From a virus: a stretch of DNA of 32,047 nt. The stretch covers positions 1 through 32,047 of the IMG/VR virus record IMGVR_UViG_3300028809_000047. One strand, 5' to 3'. The first letter of the stretch is position 1, and every line of letters starts with the position of its first letter. This document shows, in pieces, positions 666 through 27,619 of the stretch. The notes beneath the pieces were generated by a model. The model had not been told where the DNA came from. It saw only the letters and a list, made by a program, of their open reading frames with translations, and ran no database searches. Position numbers and translations under genes: made by a program.

Positions 666-1526
666 ATGGCAATTTACATCTACCACCTGTGCTGTCCTGA
701 CACCGGTGAAATCCGTTACATTGGCAAGTCGAATAATCCGCAACACCGTTTCAGCAGACACATCCAGGCTTCTAAAAATCCTAAGAATTATGCGCAGCGT
801 TGGATTGCTACTTTGATCCGCGCGGGTAAAAAGCCCGTGCTTAAAATAGCCGCTGAGCTTTCTCCTGAAGAGAACTGGCAAGAAGTAGAAAAACAAGCGA
901 TAGCTAAAGGTTTCGCCGACGGCTTGCGTTTGACGAATACGAGTGCAGGGGGTGAAGGCGTACTGATTTTAGATCCGGTAAAGGAAGCTTCGCGAATAGC
1001 AGCCATAGATAAAGCATGGAAGTGTGCGGCCCTGCGTAGACGTCAAGGCGACAGGGTTAAAGCCGGCATGGGTACTCCGGAATCTAAGGCAGCGAATCGC
1101 GCACGGATGTTAGAAAAATGGCAGGACCCCGAGTACGCAGCTTTAAACGCGAGAAGGGTTAGTGAGGCGTATTCGACACCAGAAGCGCGCAAAGCCCAGT
1201 CGGAAAGGGCTATAGAAGCTAATAAAAACCCAGAAGTTGTGGCGAAAAGAGTAGCCGGTATAAAGGCCGCATGGGCAGAACCAGCTAAGAAAGAAGAATG
1301 GGTAGCCAACATAACTGCCTCGCAGAATACACCGGCAGCGAGGGCTTCAAAGTCGGCACAAATGAAAGCCTTCCACCAAGATCCTGAATTTATCGCCAGA
1401 CGCAAGGTGCGAATGGCCGATCCGGAGATGATAAAGCGACGCGGCTTGGCCATATCTGCGGCCAAGCAAAAGAAAAAGGCCGAGCGGCTAGCTGCTGAAA
1501 AACTAGCAAATACCCCGCCAACCTAA
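666..1526 (+). CDS. GIY-YIG homing-type endonuclease
   Basis: The 286-residue product begins with a GIY-YIG nuclease domain at about residues 3-95. It shows YIY at 4-6, YIG at 18-20, the following NPQHRFSRH segment with the expected catalytic Arg, and a conserved Glu in the EVEKQAIAKG helix near residue 75. The C-terminal 170 residues are a tandem array of roughly 20-24 residue units of the form DPE/TPE..A..R...A, resembling the NUMOD3-type DNA-binding repeats of phage endonucleases. The start is supported by GGGAG ten bases upstream. The gene sits directly behind the capsid terminator and before an unrelated virion gene, the typical position of a free-standing homing endonuclease. Its A+T content is visibly higher than that of its neighbours, which suggests separate acquisition. 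The target site cannot be predicted. Confidence 0.85.
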   Translation: MAIYIYHLCCPDTGEIRYIGKSNNPQHRFSRHIQASKNPKNYAQRWIATLIRAGKKPVLKIAAELSPEENWQEVEKQAIAKGFADGLRLTNTSAGGEGVLILDPVKEASRIAAIDKAWKCAALRRRQGDRVKAGMGTPESKAANRARMLEKWQDPEYAALNARRVSEAYSTPEARKAQSERAIEANKNPEVVAKRVAGIKAAWAEPAKKEEWVANITASQNTPAARASKSAQMKAFHQDPEFIARRKVRMADPEMIKRRGLAISAAKQKKKAERLAAEKLANTPPT

Positions 1527-3000: not shown

Positions 3001-4377
3001 ATGCGTCTATTCGGTCGAGAGCTGTCCCTAACCTTCAAGCGTGCGCCAATGTCGCCGCCCGGTACGGGCATGGGCGGTTGGTGGCCGATGATCCGCGAAC
3101 CTTACTCCGGCGCATGGCAGAAGAACGATACGTGGACTAATGAATCGGTCTTGGCGCATTACGCCGTCTACGCCTGCGTAACGCTTATCGCGAATGACAT
3201 CGGCAAGTTGCGTCAGCGCTTGATGGAACTGGACGCGAACGGGATCTGGAAAGAGACCACTAGCCCAGCTTTCAGTCCGGTGCTCAAGAAGCCGAACAAC
3301 TACCAGAACCATATCCAGTTCAAACAATGGTGGCAGACCTCTAAGTTGATCAGCGGCAACACCTACGGGTTGAAGCAGCGCGACCAGCGTGGTGTAGTCG
3401 TGGCTATTTATTTGCTTGACCCGTGTCGCGTGCTCCCCCTGGTCGCTGAAGACGGTTCGATCTACTACCAGCTCTCGAACGACAATTTGAACCGCGTAGG
3501 CGACGGCGTAACCGTACCGGCGTCCGAGATCATCCATGACCGGATGAACTGCTTGTTCCACCCCCTGGTAGGCGTGTCTCCGCTCTACGCCGCCGCGCAA
3601 GCCGCGTGCCAGTCCCTCAAGATGCAAAGCGATAGCTCGACCTTCTTCGAGAACGGCGCGCGTCCTGGCGGCATCCTGTCGGCCCCCGGCGCTATCAGCG
3701 ACGAGACGGCAGCACGGCTTAAAGCGCATTGGGACGCGAACTACACCGGCCAGAATGCGGGTAAGGTCGCCGTTGTCGGTGACGATCTCAAGTTCCAGCA
3801 GATGAAGATGTCGGCCACTGATTCGCAATTGATCGAACAATTCCGGCTTACCGCGGAAATGATCTGCACGGCGTTCCACGTCCCCCCGTCCAAAGTCGGC
3901 GTGACCAACTCCCCGACTGGAACTACCGCAGCACAAGAGAACCAGAAGTATTACTCGGACTGCATTCAGGTACTCGCCGAAGAATACGAGGCTTGCATGG
4001 ACGACGGCCTTTCGCTGCCAGTTCAGTACGGTGTAGAGCTTGATGTAGAAGGCCTGCTGAGGATGGACATGGGCGCGTTGGTGACAACCTTGGCCGCCGC
4101 AGTCGGAGGTAGCATCATGACGCCTAACGCAGCCTTGCGTAAGCTAAACCAGCCTCCAGTCGCCGGCGGCGACACAATTTACATGCAGCAGCAAAATTAT
4201 TCGCTCTCCGCTCTGTCGAAACGTGATGCGCAGGTAGATCCATTCGCCACCGGCACCGCGCAGCCTGCAGCTACAGAGCCGGCCGCACCGGCAGAACCCA
4301 CCGACGAAGAAATCCAAGACAGCGCGAAGTTGCTCGCGATGCTCGTAGAGAAGGGGCTAAACATTGAACATGCGTGA
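3001..4377 (+). CDS. Portal protein, HK97 family
   Basis: The 458-residue product has the usual length and order of HK97-type portals. It has an N-terminal segment with WTNESVLAHYAVYACVTLIA, the wing region NGIWKETTSPAFSPVLKKPN, a clip/stem region KMSATDSQLIEQFRLTAEMI, the conserved CTAFHVPPSKVG, and the crown motif TAAQENQKYYSDCIQVLAEE. The C-terminus is a proline/alanine-rich acidic tail that fits inside the head. The portal dodecamer forms the DNA entry/exit ring at one capsid vertex and is the docking site for terminase and the connectors. It follows the small E3-binding-like gene by three bases and overlaps the next gene by eight. Its position after the capsid gene is out of the usual terminase-portal-protease-capsid order. 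Confidence 0.93.
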   Translation: MRLFGRELSLTFKRAPMSPPGTGMGGWWPMIREPYSGAWQKNDTWTNESVLAHYAVYACVTLIANDIGKLRQRLMELDANGIWKETTSPAFSPVLKKPNNYQNHIQFKQWWQTSKLISGNTYGLKQRDQRGVVVAIYLLDPCRVLPLVAEDGSIYYQLSNDNLNRVGDGVTVPASEIIHDRMNCLFHPLVGVSPLYAAAQAACQSLKMQSDSSTFFENGARPGGILSAPGAISDETAARLKAHWDANYTGQNAGKVAVVGDDLKFQQMKMSATDSQLIEQFRLTAEMICTAFHVPPSKVGVTNSPTGTTAAQENQKYYSDCIQVLAEEYEACMDDGLSLPVQYGVELDVEGLLRMDMGALVTTLAAAVGGSIMTPNAALRKLNQPPVAGGDTIYMQQQNYSLSALSKRDAQVDPFATGTAQPAATEPAAPAEPTDEEIQDSAKLLAMLVEKGLNIEHA

Positions 4378-6995: not shown

Positions 6996-7007
6996 GTAGG
7001 AGGACTA

Positions 7008-7559
7008 TTGAAAACCTTCGTCTGCATCGCCTCCGGCCCAAGTCTCAACGCGCGCGACTGCGAACTGGTACGCGCCGCCGGCCTTCCCACGATCGCCGTG
7101 AACAACTCCTGGCAGCTAGCCCCGTGGTGCGATCACCTTTACGCAGGTGATCTCGCGTGGTGGGACGCGAACGTCCATGGGATTCCCCATGGACCTAAAC
7201 GCTGGAGCTGTACGCGCCAGGCAGTGGCAAAGCACGGGTTGAACTGGCACGAAGCCTACGGTGAATATAATTCAGGTTTGAGAGCGATTGAACTGGCCTT
7301 CAAGCTCGGCGCAGAACGCGTCCTGCTTCTTGGGTACGACTGCACGGTGTCCAAAGGTACGCACTGGCACGGCGACCACGAGAGCACAAAGAACCCGGAC
7401 GAACTCCGGTGCCGCAAATGGGCAGCGCAACACTCCCGCCTGCCACAACGCGATAGGGTCGTCAACTGCTCTCGTGAAACCGCGCTGGAATGCTACCGGC
7501 TCGGGCATCTTGAAAAAGAGTTGCAAAAGGTTGTTGACACTTGTGATGCGCGCGACTAA
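7008..7559 (+). CDS. Norphogenetic / DUF115-like Rossmann protein
   Basis: The product has 183 residues from TTG 7008, chosen because AGGAGG ends four bases upstream. Longer in-frame starts would run back through the terminator into the Gp49-like gene. It opens with KTFVCIASGPSLNARDCELV, a glycine-containing Rossmann-like start. It then has VNNSWQLAPWCDHLYAGDLAWWD, GYDCTVSKGTHWHGDHESTKN and a late NCSRETALECY. This layout is that of the phage proteins annotated as norphogenetic and of the DUF115/MptE-like superfamily, which includes enzymes acting on sugar or pterin phosphates. The activity of the phage versions is unknown. It starts an accessory block with a glycosyltransferase-like gene and a methyltransferase, so a role in glycan or nucleotide-sugar modification is inferred only. 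The family is fairly sure. Confidence 0.65.
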   Translation: MKTFVCIASGPSLNARDCELVRAAGLPTIAVNNSWQLAPWCDHLYAGDLAWWDANVHGIPHGPKRWSCTRQAVAKHGLNWHEAYGEYNSGLRAIELAFKLGAERVLLLGYDCTVSKGTHWHGDHESTKNPDELRCRKWAAQHSRLPQRDRVVNCSRETALECYRLGHLEKELQKVVDTCDARD

Positions 7560-7727
7560 AGTTTGTTTCAGAGGCAGCTAGCTATCAGGCGCACAACGTG
7601 AAGCCGGGCAAGAATGCAGAGTCCCGGATTAAAGTGCAGTCTCTAACCGATCAACCAGCGCCAAAGACCGCGAAAGCATGGCAAGTCTAGAGAAGTTTGC
7701 CCATCGCAGCCCGCACATGCGGAATAG

Positions 7728-7828
7728 TTGCACCAAATCTATCGCCTAGAGCGAAAACCGTTATGGTTAAGTCCGCCGCGCGGCACCGGAGCAAGCTTCC
7801 CGGGTTCTAGGCGATAGATCTGGTGCAA
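7728..7828 (+). repeat. Large inverted repeat (23-base arms, 55-base loop)
   Basis: Arms 7728-7750 and 7806-7828 are complementary at 22 of 23 positions (single A/C mismatch at 7736). The outer ends are TTGCACCA and TGGTGCAA, the inner ends CGCCTAGA and TCTAGGCG. Such a stem is far longer than a terminator needs and has no T tract. It may form a rigid RNA stem or a DNA cruciform. It is the strongest element of the gap between genes 7008 and 7950. Confidence 0.85.
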
Positions 7829-7913
7829 TTGAAAGCGGGGAGACGCCGTGTCATGCCATCGGCGCAGTCTCGCGGTAAGGCATACCCTTTGCACCTTTAA
7901 ATTCCCGTACTTC

Positions 7914-7939
7914 AGCCCGGCTTATGCCGGGTTCTTTTT
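7914..7939 (+). terminator. Intrinsic terminator directly before gene 7950
   Basis: AGCCCGGC 7914-7921, TTAT loop, GCCGGGTT 7926-7933, then CTTTTT. The start codon of the glycosyltransferase-like gene is eleven bases beyond the T tract, repeating the terminator-then-gene arrangement seen at 6972-7008. Confidence 0.85.
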
Positions 7940-7949
7940 AGGTAAGCTT

Positions 7950-8780
7950 ATGATAATTCACGGAATGATGGGGCTTGGAGATAATCTCTTTGAGCGTCCT
8001 TTCATTAAAGCGCTACCGAAGCCTGTATATCTTTCTACACCATGGCCTTTCATCTTCCACGACATTCCTGGCGTGCATTTCCTCCGGCCGCAAACCAATC
8101 TGCGCACCCAAGCGAAGAACATCGCGCGCCACGCAACCTGGACGATGCCTCCCACGCGTCAACCCACTCGACAGATCCGCTACGGCGCCGAGGGAATTAT
8201 TCCCGGGATGATCGCCAGCTTCGGCGTAATGCCGGGCGAGTTCGACCTTCCACCGCTGCCGCCTTCGCCAGAAACTGGCCCGTACGTCGTCGTGCGCCCG
8301 GCTACCGTGCGCAGTGAGTGGCGAGCGGATACGCGTAACCCTGATCCAGATTACATAGCGGTAGCCGCAGCTTTGGCATGGGCAAAAGGCTATAAAGTGA
8401 TCAGCATCGCCGACCTAGAAGACGGCAAGGAGTGGGTGGTAGAACCTTTGCCGATCGCCGACGTGCGTTATCACAAAGGCGAACTGCCGGTCGAACAACT
8501 GCTGGCGCTCGTCAAGGGTGCTGCCGCCGTGATCGGCGGTATCGGCTGGCTGGTCCCGGCGGCGCTTGCGGCCAAGGTTCCCGCGTGGATCATCTGCGGC
8601 GGCCAGGGCGGTTTCAATTCGCCGAAGCAGATCTGCCCGGACGGCAGTACAATTACCTTTGCGGTGCCGGACAACTTTTGCCGGTGCAAATTAAAGCAGC
8701 ATGCCTGCGACAAGAGGATTTCCAACTATGACGCCAAGCTTACCGAGTGGGCTGACCGACACCTTTTTATGGTCCCCTGA
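7950..8780 (+). CDS. Glycosyltransferase family 9-like protein
   Basis: The product has 276 residues from ATG 7950, with AGGT 7 bases upstream. A GTG start at 7848 would have to translate the terminator. It begins MIIHGMMGLGDNLFERPF, the loop that opens heptosyltransferase-like (GT9) proteins. Residues about 110-150 give VVVRPATVRSEWRADTRNP. The second Rossmann half has ELPVEQLLALVKGAAAVIGG and AALAAKVPAWIICGGQGGFN, as in the nucleotide-sugar binding half of GT9 enzymes. The usual Asp-Thr-Gly/His pair at the acceptor site is replaced by GGIGWLVP, so activity is not assured. A Cys/His-rich tail (CRCKLKQHACDKR) is unusual. It overlaps the following methyltransferase gene by about 50 bases. A role in sugar transfer to a virion component or DNA is inferred from the family. 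Confidence 0.65.
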   Translation: MIIHGMMGLGDNLFERPFIKALPKPVYLSTPWPFIFHDIPGVHFLRPQTNLRTQAKNIARHATWTMPPTRQPTRQIRYGAEGIIPGMIASFGVMPGEFDLPPLPPSPETGPYVVVRPATVRSEWRADTRNPDPDYIAVAAALAWAKGYKVISIADLEDGKEWVVEPLPIADVRYHKGELPVEQLLALVKGAAAVIGGIGWLVPAALAAKVPAWIICGGQGGFNSPKQICPDGSTITFAVPDNFCRCKLKQHACDKRISNYDAKLTEWADRHLFMVP

Positions 8781-26769: not shown

Positions 26770-27083
26770 TACGCCACGCTCCAATCTTCCAGTGCCAGCA
26801 CCGGGCTTTTCAGACAGAGGAAGAAAAGCATGTGATCGACCTGCTCTTTGCTGTCCAGCCAAACCACTTCGGCACCCGCAGCACGGCGACGCTCGTGGTC
26901 GCGCACCTGGGCTTCGGTAGGCTTTTTGCCGGTCGCTTTCAGCTCAACAAACAACACGCGCCCGCTGAAGGTGATCATCCGATCAGGCACCGAACGACGC
27001 TGAGGCGACACAAATTTGTCACAAAGAGCCCCTATTTCCTTACACCGTTTCACCAAATACGCTTCAATGTCTCTTTCCAGCAT
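26769..27083 (-). CDS. VRR-NUC domain nuclease
   Basis: The product has 104 residues from ATG 27083 (TGATG with the HNH stop; AAGGAG 8 bases upstream). The PD-(D/E)XK core reads VPDRMITFSGRVLFVELKAT, with PDR, the ELKA motif and Lys-rich loop, followed by TEAQVRDHERRRAAGAEVVW. Stand-alone VRR-NUC proteins of phages cut flap or Holliday-junction-like DNA. The overlap with the SNF2-like helicase gene suggests that they act together. Confidence 0.88.
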   Translation of the reverse strand: MLERDIEAYLVKRCKEIGALCDKFVSPQRRSVPDRMITFSGRVLFVELKATGKKPTEAQVRDHERRRAAGAEVVWLDSKEQVDHMLFFLCLKSPVLALEDWSVA

Positions 27084-27619
27084 CACGCGCACTCCTTAAG
27101 CAAACCCATCTTTTCGTTGGTCAAGGCGAATTCACCAACGGCCTCTACTGCTGCCGCATCGTAGATCCGTGCGGCTTCCTCGGCGGTCTTGAAGCGTCCG
27201 AGGTGAATGTACTTACCGTCCACTTGGATCTGCGCGGTGAACCTGCGTTTACTTTTGCAGTAGTGCACACCTTTGAAGCCGGAAGTGTTGTTGCTCTTTA
27301 GCGGGATATTGTATTTGTTGAGGGAGCTGCTAGCTCCGCGCAGGTTTTCGAACCTGTTGTTTTGCCGATTGAGATCTTTGTGGTCGACTTCCTGAGGCGT
27401 CTCGCCGGTGTGAAGAAAGTAGGCCAAGCGGTGCGCTAAAAGACGCTTGCCGTTTAGTTGCGTATGGAAATACCCGGCGCTATGCAAACAGTCGATCACA
27501 TCCCCTACGAGTGCGTTACGACTTCTGCGAACCAAGCGAGTAATCAATCCTGTCTCAGGATCATAGGAGAACAGCGACGCCAAATACTCGCGCGTGAAGC
27601 CCTTTAGGGTCGGCGTCAT
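27083..27619 (-). CDS. HNH endonuclease with AP2 DNA-binding domain
   Basis: The 178-residue product has an HNH nuclease domain at about 55-100 (AHRLAYFLHTGETPQEVDHK, then NRQNNRFENLR) and an AP2 domain at about 115-165 (TSGFKGVHYCKSKRRFTAQI, then FKTAEEAARIYDAAA). This is the classic two-domain form of phage HNH homing endonucleases. Unlike most, it is coupled at both ends: ATGA with the upstream gene and TGATG with the VRR-NUC gene, so if it was inserted, it was inserted neatly. No intron is visible around it. Confidence 0.9.
   Translation of the reverse strand: MTPTLKGFTREYLASLFSYDPETGLITRLVRRSRNALVGDVIDCLHSAGYFHTQLNGKRLLAHRLAYFLHTGETPQEVDHKDLNRQNNRFENLRGASSSLNKYNIPLKSNNTSGFKGVHYCKSKRRFTAQIQVDGKYIHLGRFKTAEEAARIYDAAAVEAVGEFALTNEKMGLLKECA

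What the first reader, a model, noticed from the sequence alone, without database searches (positions are those of the whole stretch)
7560..7949. 390-base hairpin-rich non-coding stretch: candidate undescribed structured RNA
This is the only long gene-free stretch in a window where genes otherwise overlap. It carries at least five separate stems, among them a 23-base pair of arms with one mismatch around a 55-base structured loop (7728-7828), and it ends in a textbook terminator. It lies between a norphogenetic-like gene and a glycosyltransferase-like gene. A large stable stem followed by a terminator fits a discrete RNA, a long 5' leader controlling the glycosyltransferase, or a cruciform DNA site. 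I could not match it to tRNA, group I intron or other known phage RNA by eye.
Basis: partly seen in the sequence, partly recalled or inferred. Interest (0 to 1): 0.78.

Follow-up and report, generated by a model that had tools for sequence, protein, structure and literature searches.

The report
Mosaic structured RNA of a phage
Between two genes of this bacterial virus lies a small RNA gene with its own start and stop signals, built from interchangeable folded pieces that related and unrelated viruses combine differently; it is in no RNA catalogue searched, and its job is still unknown.

Summary
The 390 bases at 7560-7949 are non-coding, and the 23-base arms (7728-7750 / 7806-7828) make a hairpin far more stable than shuffled sequence (z = -8.25). 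The "discrete RNA" reading is the right one. A sigma-70 promoter (TTGACA-N17-TAAAGT, 7534-7562) overlaps the end of the upstream gene, and a terminator closes the unit at about 7941, giving a predicted RNA of about 370 nt. In about 40 related phages the same slot holds a mosaic of RNA modules: real tRNA genes, tRNA-like cloverleaves, H-type pseudoknots, and the same long hairpin with different arms. Eighteen distinct hairpins show strong compensatory change (92% paired; 13 of 20 pairs changed on both sides; 0 of 500 shuffles as high). In the window, modules have different closest relatives. Unrelated phages (next to terminase genes, and cultured Pseudomonas phages MR14 and AH02) carry the same scaffold. 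Rfam has no match for the window. Function is unknown. My best guess, inference only, is a trans-acting decoy or scaffold for host tRNA-binding or defence proteins, similar in kind to GOLLD/ROOL but not a member. A leader controlling the glycosyltransferase, a cruciform site, or a decayed gene fit worse.

The parts
7534..7562 (+). sigma-70 promoter TTGACA-N17-TAAAGT; the -10 box contains the stop codon of the upstream gene
   Evidence: 10 of 12 matches, 17-nt spacer; TTGACA-N17-TARAGT in 33 relatives, TTGACACTTGTGAT with a weaker -10 in 7 more, absent in the 3 relatives whose slot holds an HNH gene instead; bases upstream of -35 nearly invariant
7570..7941 (+). predicted non-coding RNA (start inferred about 7 nt after the -10 box; no transcript data)
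   Evidence: promoter and terminator; start site is inference
7570..7646 (+). module M1: 5' module with a possible H-type pseudoknot (7604-7608 with 7623-7627; 7615-7618 with 7635-7638)
   Evidence: shared only with L005 (98%) and L032 (96%); CCGGG/CCCGG is CCGGA/TCCGG in both, one compensatory change
7649..7662 (+). conserved linker GATCAACCARCGCC
   Evidence: present in most arrays, also in unrelated phages
7670..7707 (+). module M2: conserved hairpin GCGAAAGCAUGGCAAG...GUUUGCCCAUCGC
   Evidence: 13 phages, 94-95% identical to the best of them; GGCAA/UUGCC becomes GGUGA/UCACC in L005
7711..7722 (+). small hairpin CCGC-ACAU-GCGG of the scaffold
   Evidence: in nearly all arrays with the long hairpin, including unrelated phages; flanking pairs vary together
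7728..7828 (+). module M3: long hairpin with a swappable cap; strand S1 = 7728-7735, S2 = 7821-7828
   Evidence: z = -8.25; 18 distinct hairpins, 13 of 20 pairs with compensatory change; cap shared with L037, L019, L041
7822..7895 (+). module M4: unit closed by GGUGCAA (7822-7828) with UUGCACC (strand S3, 7889-7895); this pairing competes with S1:S2
   Evidence: M4 identical in L023; an S3 candidate follows the hairpin in the arrays, and changes together with S1 and S2 in L063 and MR14; energies
7914..7939 (+). intrinsic terminator AGCCCGGCUUAUGCCGGGUU + CUUUUU
   Evidence: a terminator ends nearly every array
6996..7559 (+). upstream gene (MptE-like / sialyltransferase-like); its 3' end carries the promoter
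7950..8780 (+). downstream glycosyltransferase-like gene (phrog_6804)
   Evidence: homologues annotated as glycosyltransferase family 9

Best explanation
The stretch is a small non-coding RNA gene. A sigma-70 promoter hidden in the last codons of the upstream gene starts an RNA at about 7570, and an intrinsic terminator ends it at about 7941 (both read from sequence; transcription not shown). The RNA is one member of an uncatalogued, modular phage RNA family: a fixed scaffold (5' module, GATCAACCARCGCC linker, CCGCACAUGCGG hairpin, strands S1, S2, S3, terminator) into which different folded units are exchanged between phages, among them true tRNAs, anticodon-less tRNA-like cloverleaves and pseudoknots (shown by comparison). 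S2 can close either the long hairpin (with S1) or the next unit (with S3), so the RNA has two mutually exclusive folds; the hairpin is favoured in the model (computed, not tested). How it works is inference: I think it accumulates as a stable RNA during infection and acts in trans as a decoy or scaffold for host proteins that handle or attack tRNA-like RNAs, with module exchange driven by a varying set of hosts and defences. My confidence is about 0.9 that this is a dedicated RNA gene, 0.85 for the modular family, and 0.3 for the decoy role; the score below is for the statement as a whole, with the function step marked as inference.
For: Promoter and terminator. Promoter kept in 33 relatives, with a weaker -10 in 7 more, and lost in the three where an HNH gene fills the slot. 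Covariation of the long hairpin over 18 distinct examples: 92.2% of cells paired against 75.4% in shuffles and 33-44% when slid; 13 of 20 pairs change on both sides, 0 of 500 shuffles. Pseudoknot module of relatives: 4 of 9 pairs with compensatory change, 100% paired. Mosaicism: the closest relatives of M1, M2, M3 and M4 are L005, L095/L037/L030, L037 and L023, at 95-100%, although the upstream genes of L037 and L023 are only 75-79% identical to the window's. tRNA genes on the RNA strand in the same slot. tRNA-like caps with a T arm in five hairpins (L023, L030, L100, L164, L190), and a 4-nt loop in place of an anticodon loop in L023 and MR14. Same scaffold in unrelated phages. No Rfam match in the window.
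Against: No transcript has been seen. The window itself has no tRNA or T arm, so the tRNA-mimic idea rests on relatives. The three-arm fold of its cap is not the predicted fold of its relatives L019 and L041. S1:S2 is favoured by 4-13 kcal/mol over S2:S3 in all 22 arrays tested, so the second fold may not form. No partner protein is known, and no defence link was found; the decoy role is an analogy.
Confidence: 0.6

Rival explanations
1. A cis-acting 5' leader or attenuator: the alternative pairings S1:S2 and S2:S3 and the terminator control read-through into the glycosyltransferase gene.
For: Terminator lies right before the gene; two exclusive pairings exist; gene order with the glycosyltransferase is kept across the related group.
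Against: The scaffold sits next to terminase genes, NinG or other genes in other phages. Small ORFs often lie between array and gene. The terminator hairpin is separate from S1-S3. The related Pseudomonas-type loci inspected have no gap and still have the gene.
Confidence: 0.12
2. A tRNA and debris region: decayed tRNA genes and selfish sequence trapped at a recombination hot spot, without an RNA function of its own.
For: True tRNAs occur in the same slot; high turnover of modules; HNH genes invade the slot.
Against: Compensatory changes in hairpin and pseudoknot; promoter kept; M2 at 94-95% identity in phages whose upstream genes are about 75-80% identical. Decay does not keep pairing.
Confidence: 0.12
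3. A DNA-level site: cruciform or recombination site used to exchange cassettes, the RNA being incidental.
For: Palindromic strands S1/S2 and short fixed linkers at module borders would suit exchange by homologous recombination.
Against: tRNA calls all fall on the + strand (17 against 0); promoter and terminator orientation fixed; the pseudoknot geometry has no DNA counterpart.
Confidence: 0.08
4. A precursor that is processed into tRNAs or tRNA-like RNAs that take part in translation.
For: Several relatives carry good tRNA genes, seven with tRNA-Trp; in L039 and L020 strand S2 lies at the 5' end of the predicted tRNA.
Against: The window has no tRNA; the tRNA-like caps folded here show no 7-nt anticodon loop.
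Confidence: 0.08

Closest known systems
GOLLD and ROOL RNAs
   Same: Non-coding, phage or prophage borne, often near tRNA islands, elaborately folded, GOLLD sometimes with tRNAs in its linker, unknown function (PMC12286853).
   Different: No match to any Rfam family at gathering score in the window, only tRNA in 13 relatives; about 110-650 nt and mosaic, whereas many GOLLD members exceed 800 nt; different arrangement.
Phage tRNA clusters (P1 and others)
   Same: Same slot holds tRNA genes in several relatives; a module found in relatives lies beside the tRNA genes of phage P1.
   Different: Most modules are not tRNAs, and the window has none.
tRNA (Rfam RF00005)
   Same: Some caps have D-like, T and acceptor arms; MR14 scores 30.9 bits.
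   Different: The acceptor continues into a long stem (MR14: 32 pairs) instead of ending in CCA; a 4-nt loop stands where the anticodon loop should be. The window's cap is not tRNA-like by sequence.
Bacterial Y RNA (YrlA)
   Same: From general knowledge: a long stem carrying a tRNA-mimicking domain, the closest design to the MR14-type hairpin.
   Different: No Rfam match; no TROVE (Ro60) protein in 14 phage records that carry arrays or modules.
Type III toxin-antitoxin RNA (ToxI)
   Same: From general knowledge: small H-type pseudoknot with an A-rich loop, and phages can carry mimics.
   Different: Single copies, not tandem repeats; the exact pattern of the relatives' pseudoknot is absent from about 85,000 bacterial and archaeal genomes.

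Membership tests
tRNA | cloverleaf with 7-nt anticodon loop and T loop, found by ARAGORN or RF00005 | tested here: not met
   window: 0 tRNA genes, 0 Rfam matches; no T arm in the window's cap
GOLLD / ROOL | match to the Rfam covariance model | tested here: not met
   0 matches in the window; only tRNA in 13 relatives
GOLLD / ROOL | forms an RNA-only nanocage | not testable with these tools
   needs cryo-EM or native gels
Bacterial Y RNA | match to a Y RNA model in Rfam | tested here: not met
   no match at gathering score, nor at E <= 10 in the window
Bacterial Y RNA | Ro60/Rsr partner encoded by the phage | tested here: not met
   no TROVE domain in 14 phage records that carry arrays or modules; host genomes not known
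Type III toxin-antitoxin RNA | tandem repeats of one pseudoknot upstream of a toxN gene | tested here: not met
   no direct repeats in the window region; single pseudoknots in arrays; no genome held has the pattern
Structured RNA family | compensatory base changes in homologues | tested here: met
   for the window's long hairpin and its homologues; for the relatives' pseudoknot
Discrete transcription unit | own promoter and terminator kept in relatives | tested here: met
Discrete transcription unit | transcript of the predicted length in infected cells | not testable with these tools
   no RNA data for this virus
cis-regulatory leader of the glycosyltransferase | always upstream of that gene | tested here: not met
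   scaffold beside terminase genes in L157, L183, L191 and after NinG in AH02

The most novel reading that the evidence does not exclude
A new kind of phage RNA system: one scaffold RNA, transcribed from its own promoter, into which phages plug exchangeable folded cartridges (anticodon-less tRNA mimics on a long acceptor stem, kissing hairpins, pseudoknots), each aimed at a different host protein such as a tRNA-cleaving defence enzyme; the three-strand S1/S2/S3 element switches which cartridge is closed.
Probability: 0.3. Interest if true: 0.92.

Novelty: new variant of a known kind. Interest (0 to 1): 0.75.

Why it matters
Phage anti-defence proteins are known to sit in fast-changing cassettes; an RNA counterpart, built from swappable folded units, did not turn up in this search of the literature and of Rfam. 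If confirmed, it gives a new place to look for RNA inhibitors of bacterial immunity and of tRNA-handling enzymes, explains gaps that annotation leaves blank or fills with false genes, and offers natural anticodon-less tRNA mimics. Cultured phages that carry the scaffold (MR14, AH02), and phage P1 with one related module, make it directly testable.

Tried and rejected
Rfam at gathering score and at E <= 10: nothing credible. BLAST of the window's gap against 50,697 phage records: no match; modules of relatives did match cultured phages. Host identification through prophages: the protein profile and the pseudoknot pattern both found nothing in the bacterial genome collection, so the host stays inferred (Pseudomonas-like, from D3/PAJU2-type relatives). 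ToxI-type antitoxin, Y RNA and tRNA membership rejected as listed. Relaxed ARAGORN settings were of little use: at 80% of the threshold 30 calls on the + strand and 15 on the - against about 6 each in shuffles, at 60% no strand difference. A cloverleaf reading of the window's own cap was considered; the fold is predicted, but its relative L019 is predicted to fold otherwise, so I do not claim it. Multi-arm caps are only moderately enriched over shuffled cores (39% against 14%). In the last pattern scan most of the new hits lacked complementary arms or lay in coding sequence and were discarded as chance. One fold (L157) was run on wrong coordinates and is not used. Literature searches found no description of such a mosaic RNA, but the library holds open-licence papers only.

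Full report
What was checked. The 390-base gap at 7560-7949 has no credible gene. Folding of 7722-7834 gives -56.5 kcal/mol, z = -8.25, none of 200 shuffles as stable; the other parts of the gap are not unusual by energy. The 390 nt as a whole has z = -2.98. A consensus scan finds a promoter TTGACA-N17-TAAAGT at 7534-7562, ten of twelve positions, and a terminator at 7914-7933 followed by CTTTTT. The predicted RNA is therefore about 7570-7941.

Relatives. The upstream protein found 45 related loci in viral contigs. In the loci that read through the end of that gene, the promoter is kept wherever an RNA array follows: 33 have TTGACA-N17-TARAGT and 7 more have the same -35 region with a weaker -10; the three whose slot holds an HNH-like gene and no array lack it. 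One of the 33 (L004) is a contig identical to the window over this stretch. The codons that carry the -35 region and the A-rich stretch before it are nearly invariant at the DNA level while earlier codons vary (the TTGACA itself was used for selection there, the stretch before it was not). The Pseudomonas-type relatives inspected, with a glycosyltransferase about 60% identical, have no gap at all.

The gap is a mosaic. In relatives the slot holds arrays of about 110 to 650 nt made of recurring modules. Some are real tRNA genes (Trp in seven loci; also Gln, Phe, Gly). ARAGORN finds 17 tRNAs on the RNA strand of the arrays, none on the other strand and none in shuffles. Others are H-type pseudoknots such as GAGG-A-CUCGG-AG-CCUC-..UAAAAAUU-CCGAG; counted over ten distinct copies, all pairs are kept and four of nine change on both sides. 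In the window itself, M1 is 98% identical to L005, M2 95% to L095, L037 and L030, M3 98% to L037, and M4 100% to L023, while the upstream genes of L037 and L023 are only 75% and 79% identical to the window's. The RNA was assembled by exchange.

The long hairpin. Eighteen distinct hairpins share the base TTGCACCA...TGGTGCAA or a variant of it, but their next 12 pairs differ from phage to phage and stay complementary. Over 20 pairs, 92.2% of cells pair; 13 pairs have compensatory changes; none of 500 shuffles reaches any of the five measures; sliding the partner by one to three columns drops pairing to 33-44%. The hairpins were found through their conserved base, so only the outer pairs are biased by selection; the inner twelve are not. 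Rows are related, so shuffles alone would be weak evidence, but the slid controls and the variety of pair types agree. The cap of the hairpin is exchanged too. In L023, L030, L100, L190 and MR14 it contains a canonical T arm. MR14 is the clearest: 32 pairs of stem, then a D-like arm, a five-pair arm with a four-base loop, and a T arm, z = -12.3, and Rfam scores it as tRNA at 30.9 bits. This is a tRNA shape without an anticodon loop and without a free CCA end. The window's cap (7751-7805) is of another type, shared with L037, L019 and L041. Its predicted three-arm fold is not the predicted fold of L019, so I make no claim of tRNA likeness for it.

Three competing strands. Strand S2 (7821-7828) can pair with S1 (7728-7735) or with S3 (7889-7895). 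An S3 follows in the other arrays with this hairpin, and where the sequence differs all three strands differ together: TTTCACC/GGTGAAA/TTTCGCC in L063 and CTGCACC/GGTGCAG/CTGCACC in MR14. In the energy model S1:S2 wins by 4-13 kcal/mol in all 22 arrays. Either the RNA switches, or S1 and S3 are kept alike because they are joints for module exchange. I cannot tell which.

Unrelated phages. The scaffold also occurs in L157, L183 and L191, beside terminase genes of two Pfam families, in L158 and L190, and in cultured Pseudomonas phages AH02 (after NinG; with other strand sequences) and MR14. It is therefore not tied to the glycosyltransferase. No Rfam family other than tRNA matched the window or the relatives searched. 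The pseudoknot pattern is absent from the bacterial and archaeal genome collection, which suggests phages that rarely integrate, or hosts not in that collection.

What it does. Shown: a conserved promoter-to-terminator unit in sequence, and covarying RNA folds. Inferred: that it is transcribed, stable and acts in trans. The decoy or scaffold role is an educated guess from four facts: tRNA-like shapes in relatives that cannot decode, placement among tRNA genes, fast exchange of modules, and independence from neighbouring genes. The nearest known kinds are GOLLD and ROOL, also phage RNAs near tRNA islands with no known function (PMC12286853), but this is not a member of either by the model search. 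I rate it a new variant of a known kind; a new kind of system is possible, with probability about 0.3.

Noticed in passing
L168:1480-1630 (phage P1), L165:1430-1560 (PAJU2), L170:1190-1310 (Klebsiella phage KP591P1), L163, L166, L167, L169, L171: A second uncatalogued RNA module: two hairpins with complementary loops (GCUGAU and AUCAGC) inside a closing stem whose sequence differs between phages. In P1 it lies just after tRNA-Asn and tRNA-Thr, in KP591P1 just before three tRNAs, in PAJU2 and Cronobacter phage ES2 after the Q-like antiterminator gene. No Rfam match over it in P1, PAJU2 or AH02.
   Followed up: partly
L160:2501-2667 (Pectobacterium phage Pappous), L161:2501-2648 (Enterobacter phage SDFMU_EhYP), L021 about 3832-4004: A third shared module of about 170 nt, about 70% identical across unrelated phages; in Pappous a hypothetical protein gene is annotated over it, probably wrongly, next to tRNA-Met.
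   Followed up: partly
L011, L012, L038, L042 (slot after the upstream gene); L091, L092, L121: HNH-endonuclease-like genes occupy the same slot in several relatives (named by eye from the sequence, not scanned); L012, L038 and L042 lack the RNA promoter, L011 keeps a short array.
   Followed up: partly
window 666-1526 (+) and 27083-27619 (-): A GIY-YIG endonuclease-like gene and an HNH/AP2 endonuclease-like gene, both typical of homing elements.
   Followed up: no
L022, L026, L029, L037, L040 and others, between terminator and glycosyltransferase gene: Small ORFs of several different types sit between the array and the glycosyltransferase gene in many relatives but not in the window.
   Followed up: no
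L020, L037, L157, L158 (5' part of arrays): Some arrays begin with a very short possible reading frame (for example ATG AAA CGT GAC TGA) that ends at the GATCAACCARCGCC linker; it may be chance or a translated leader.
   Followed up: no
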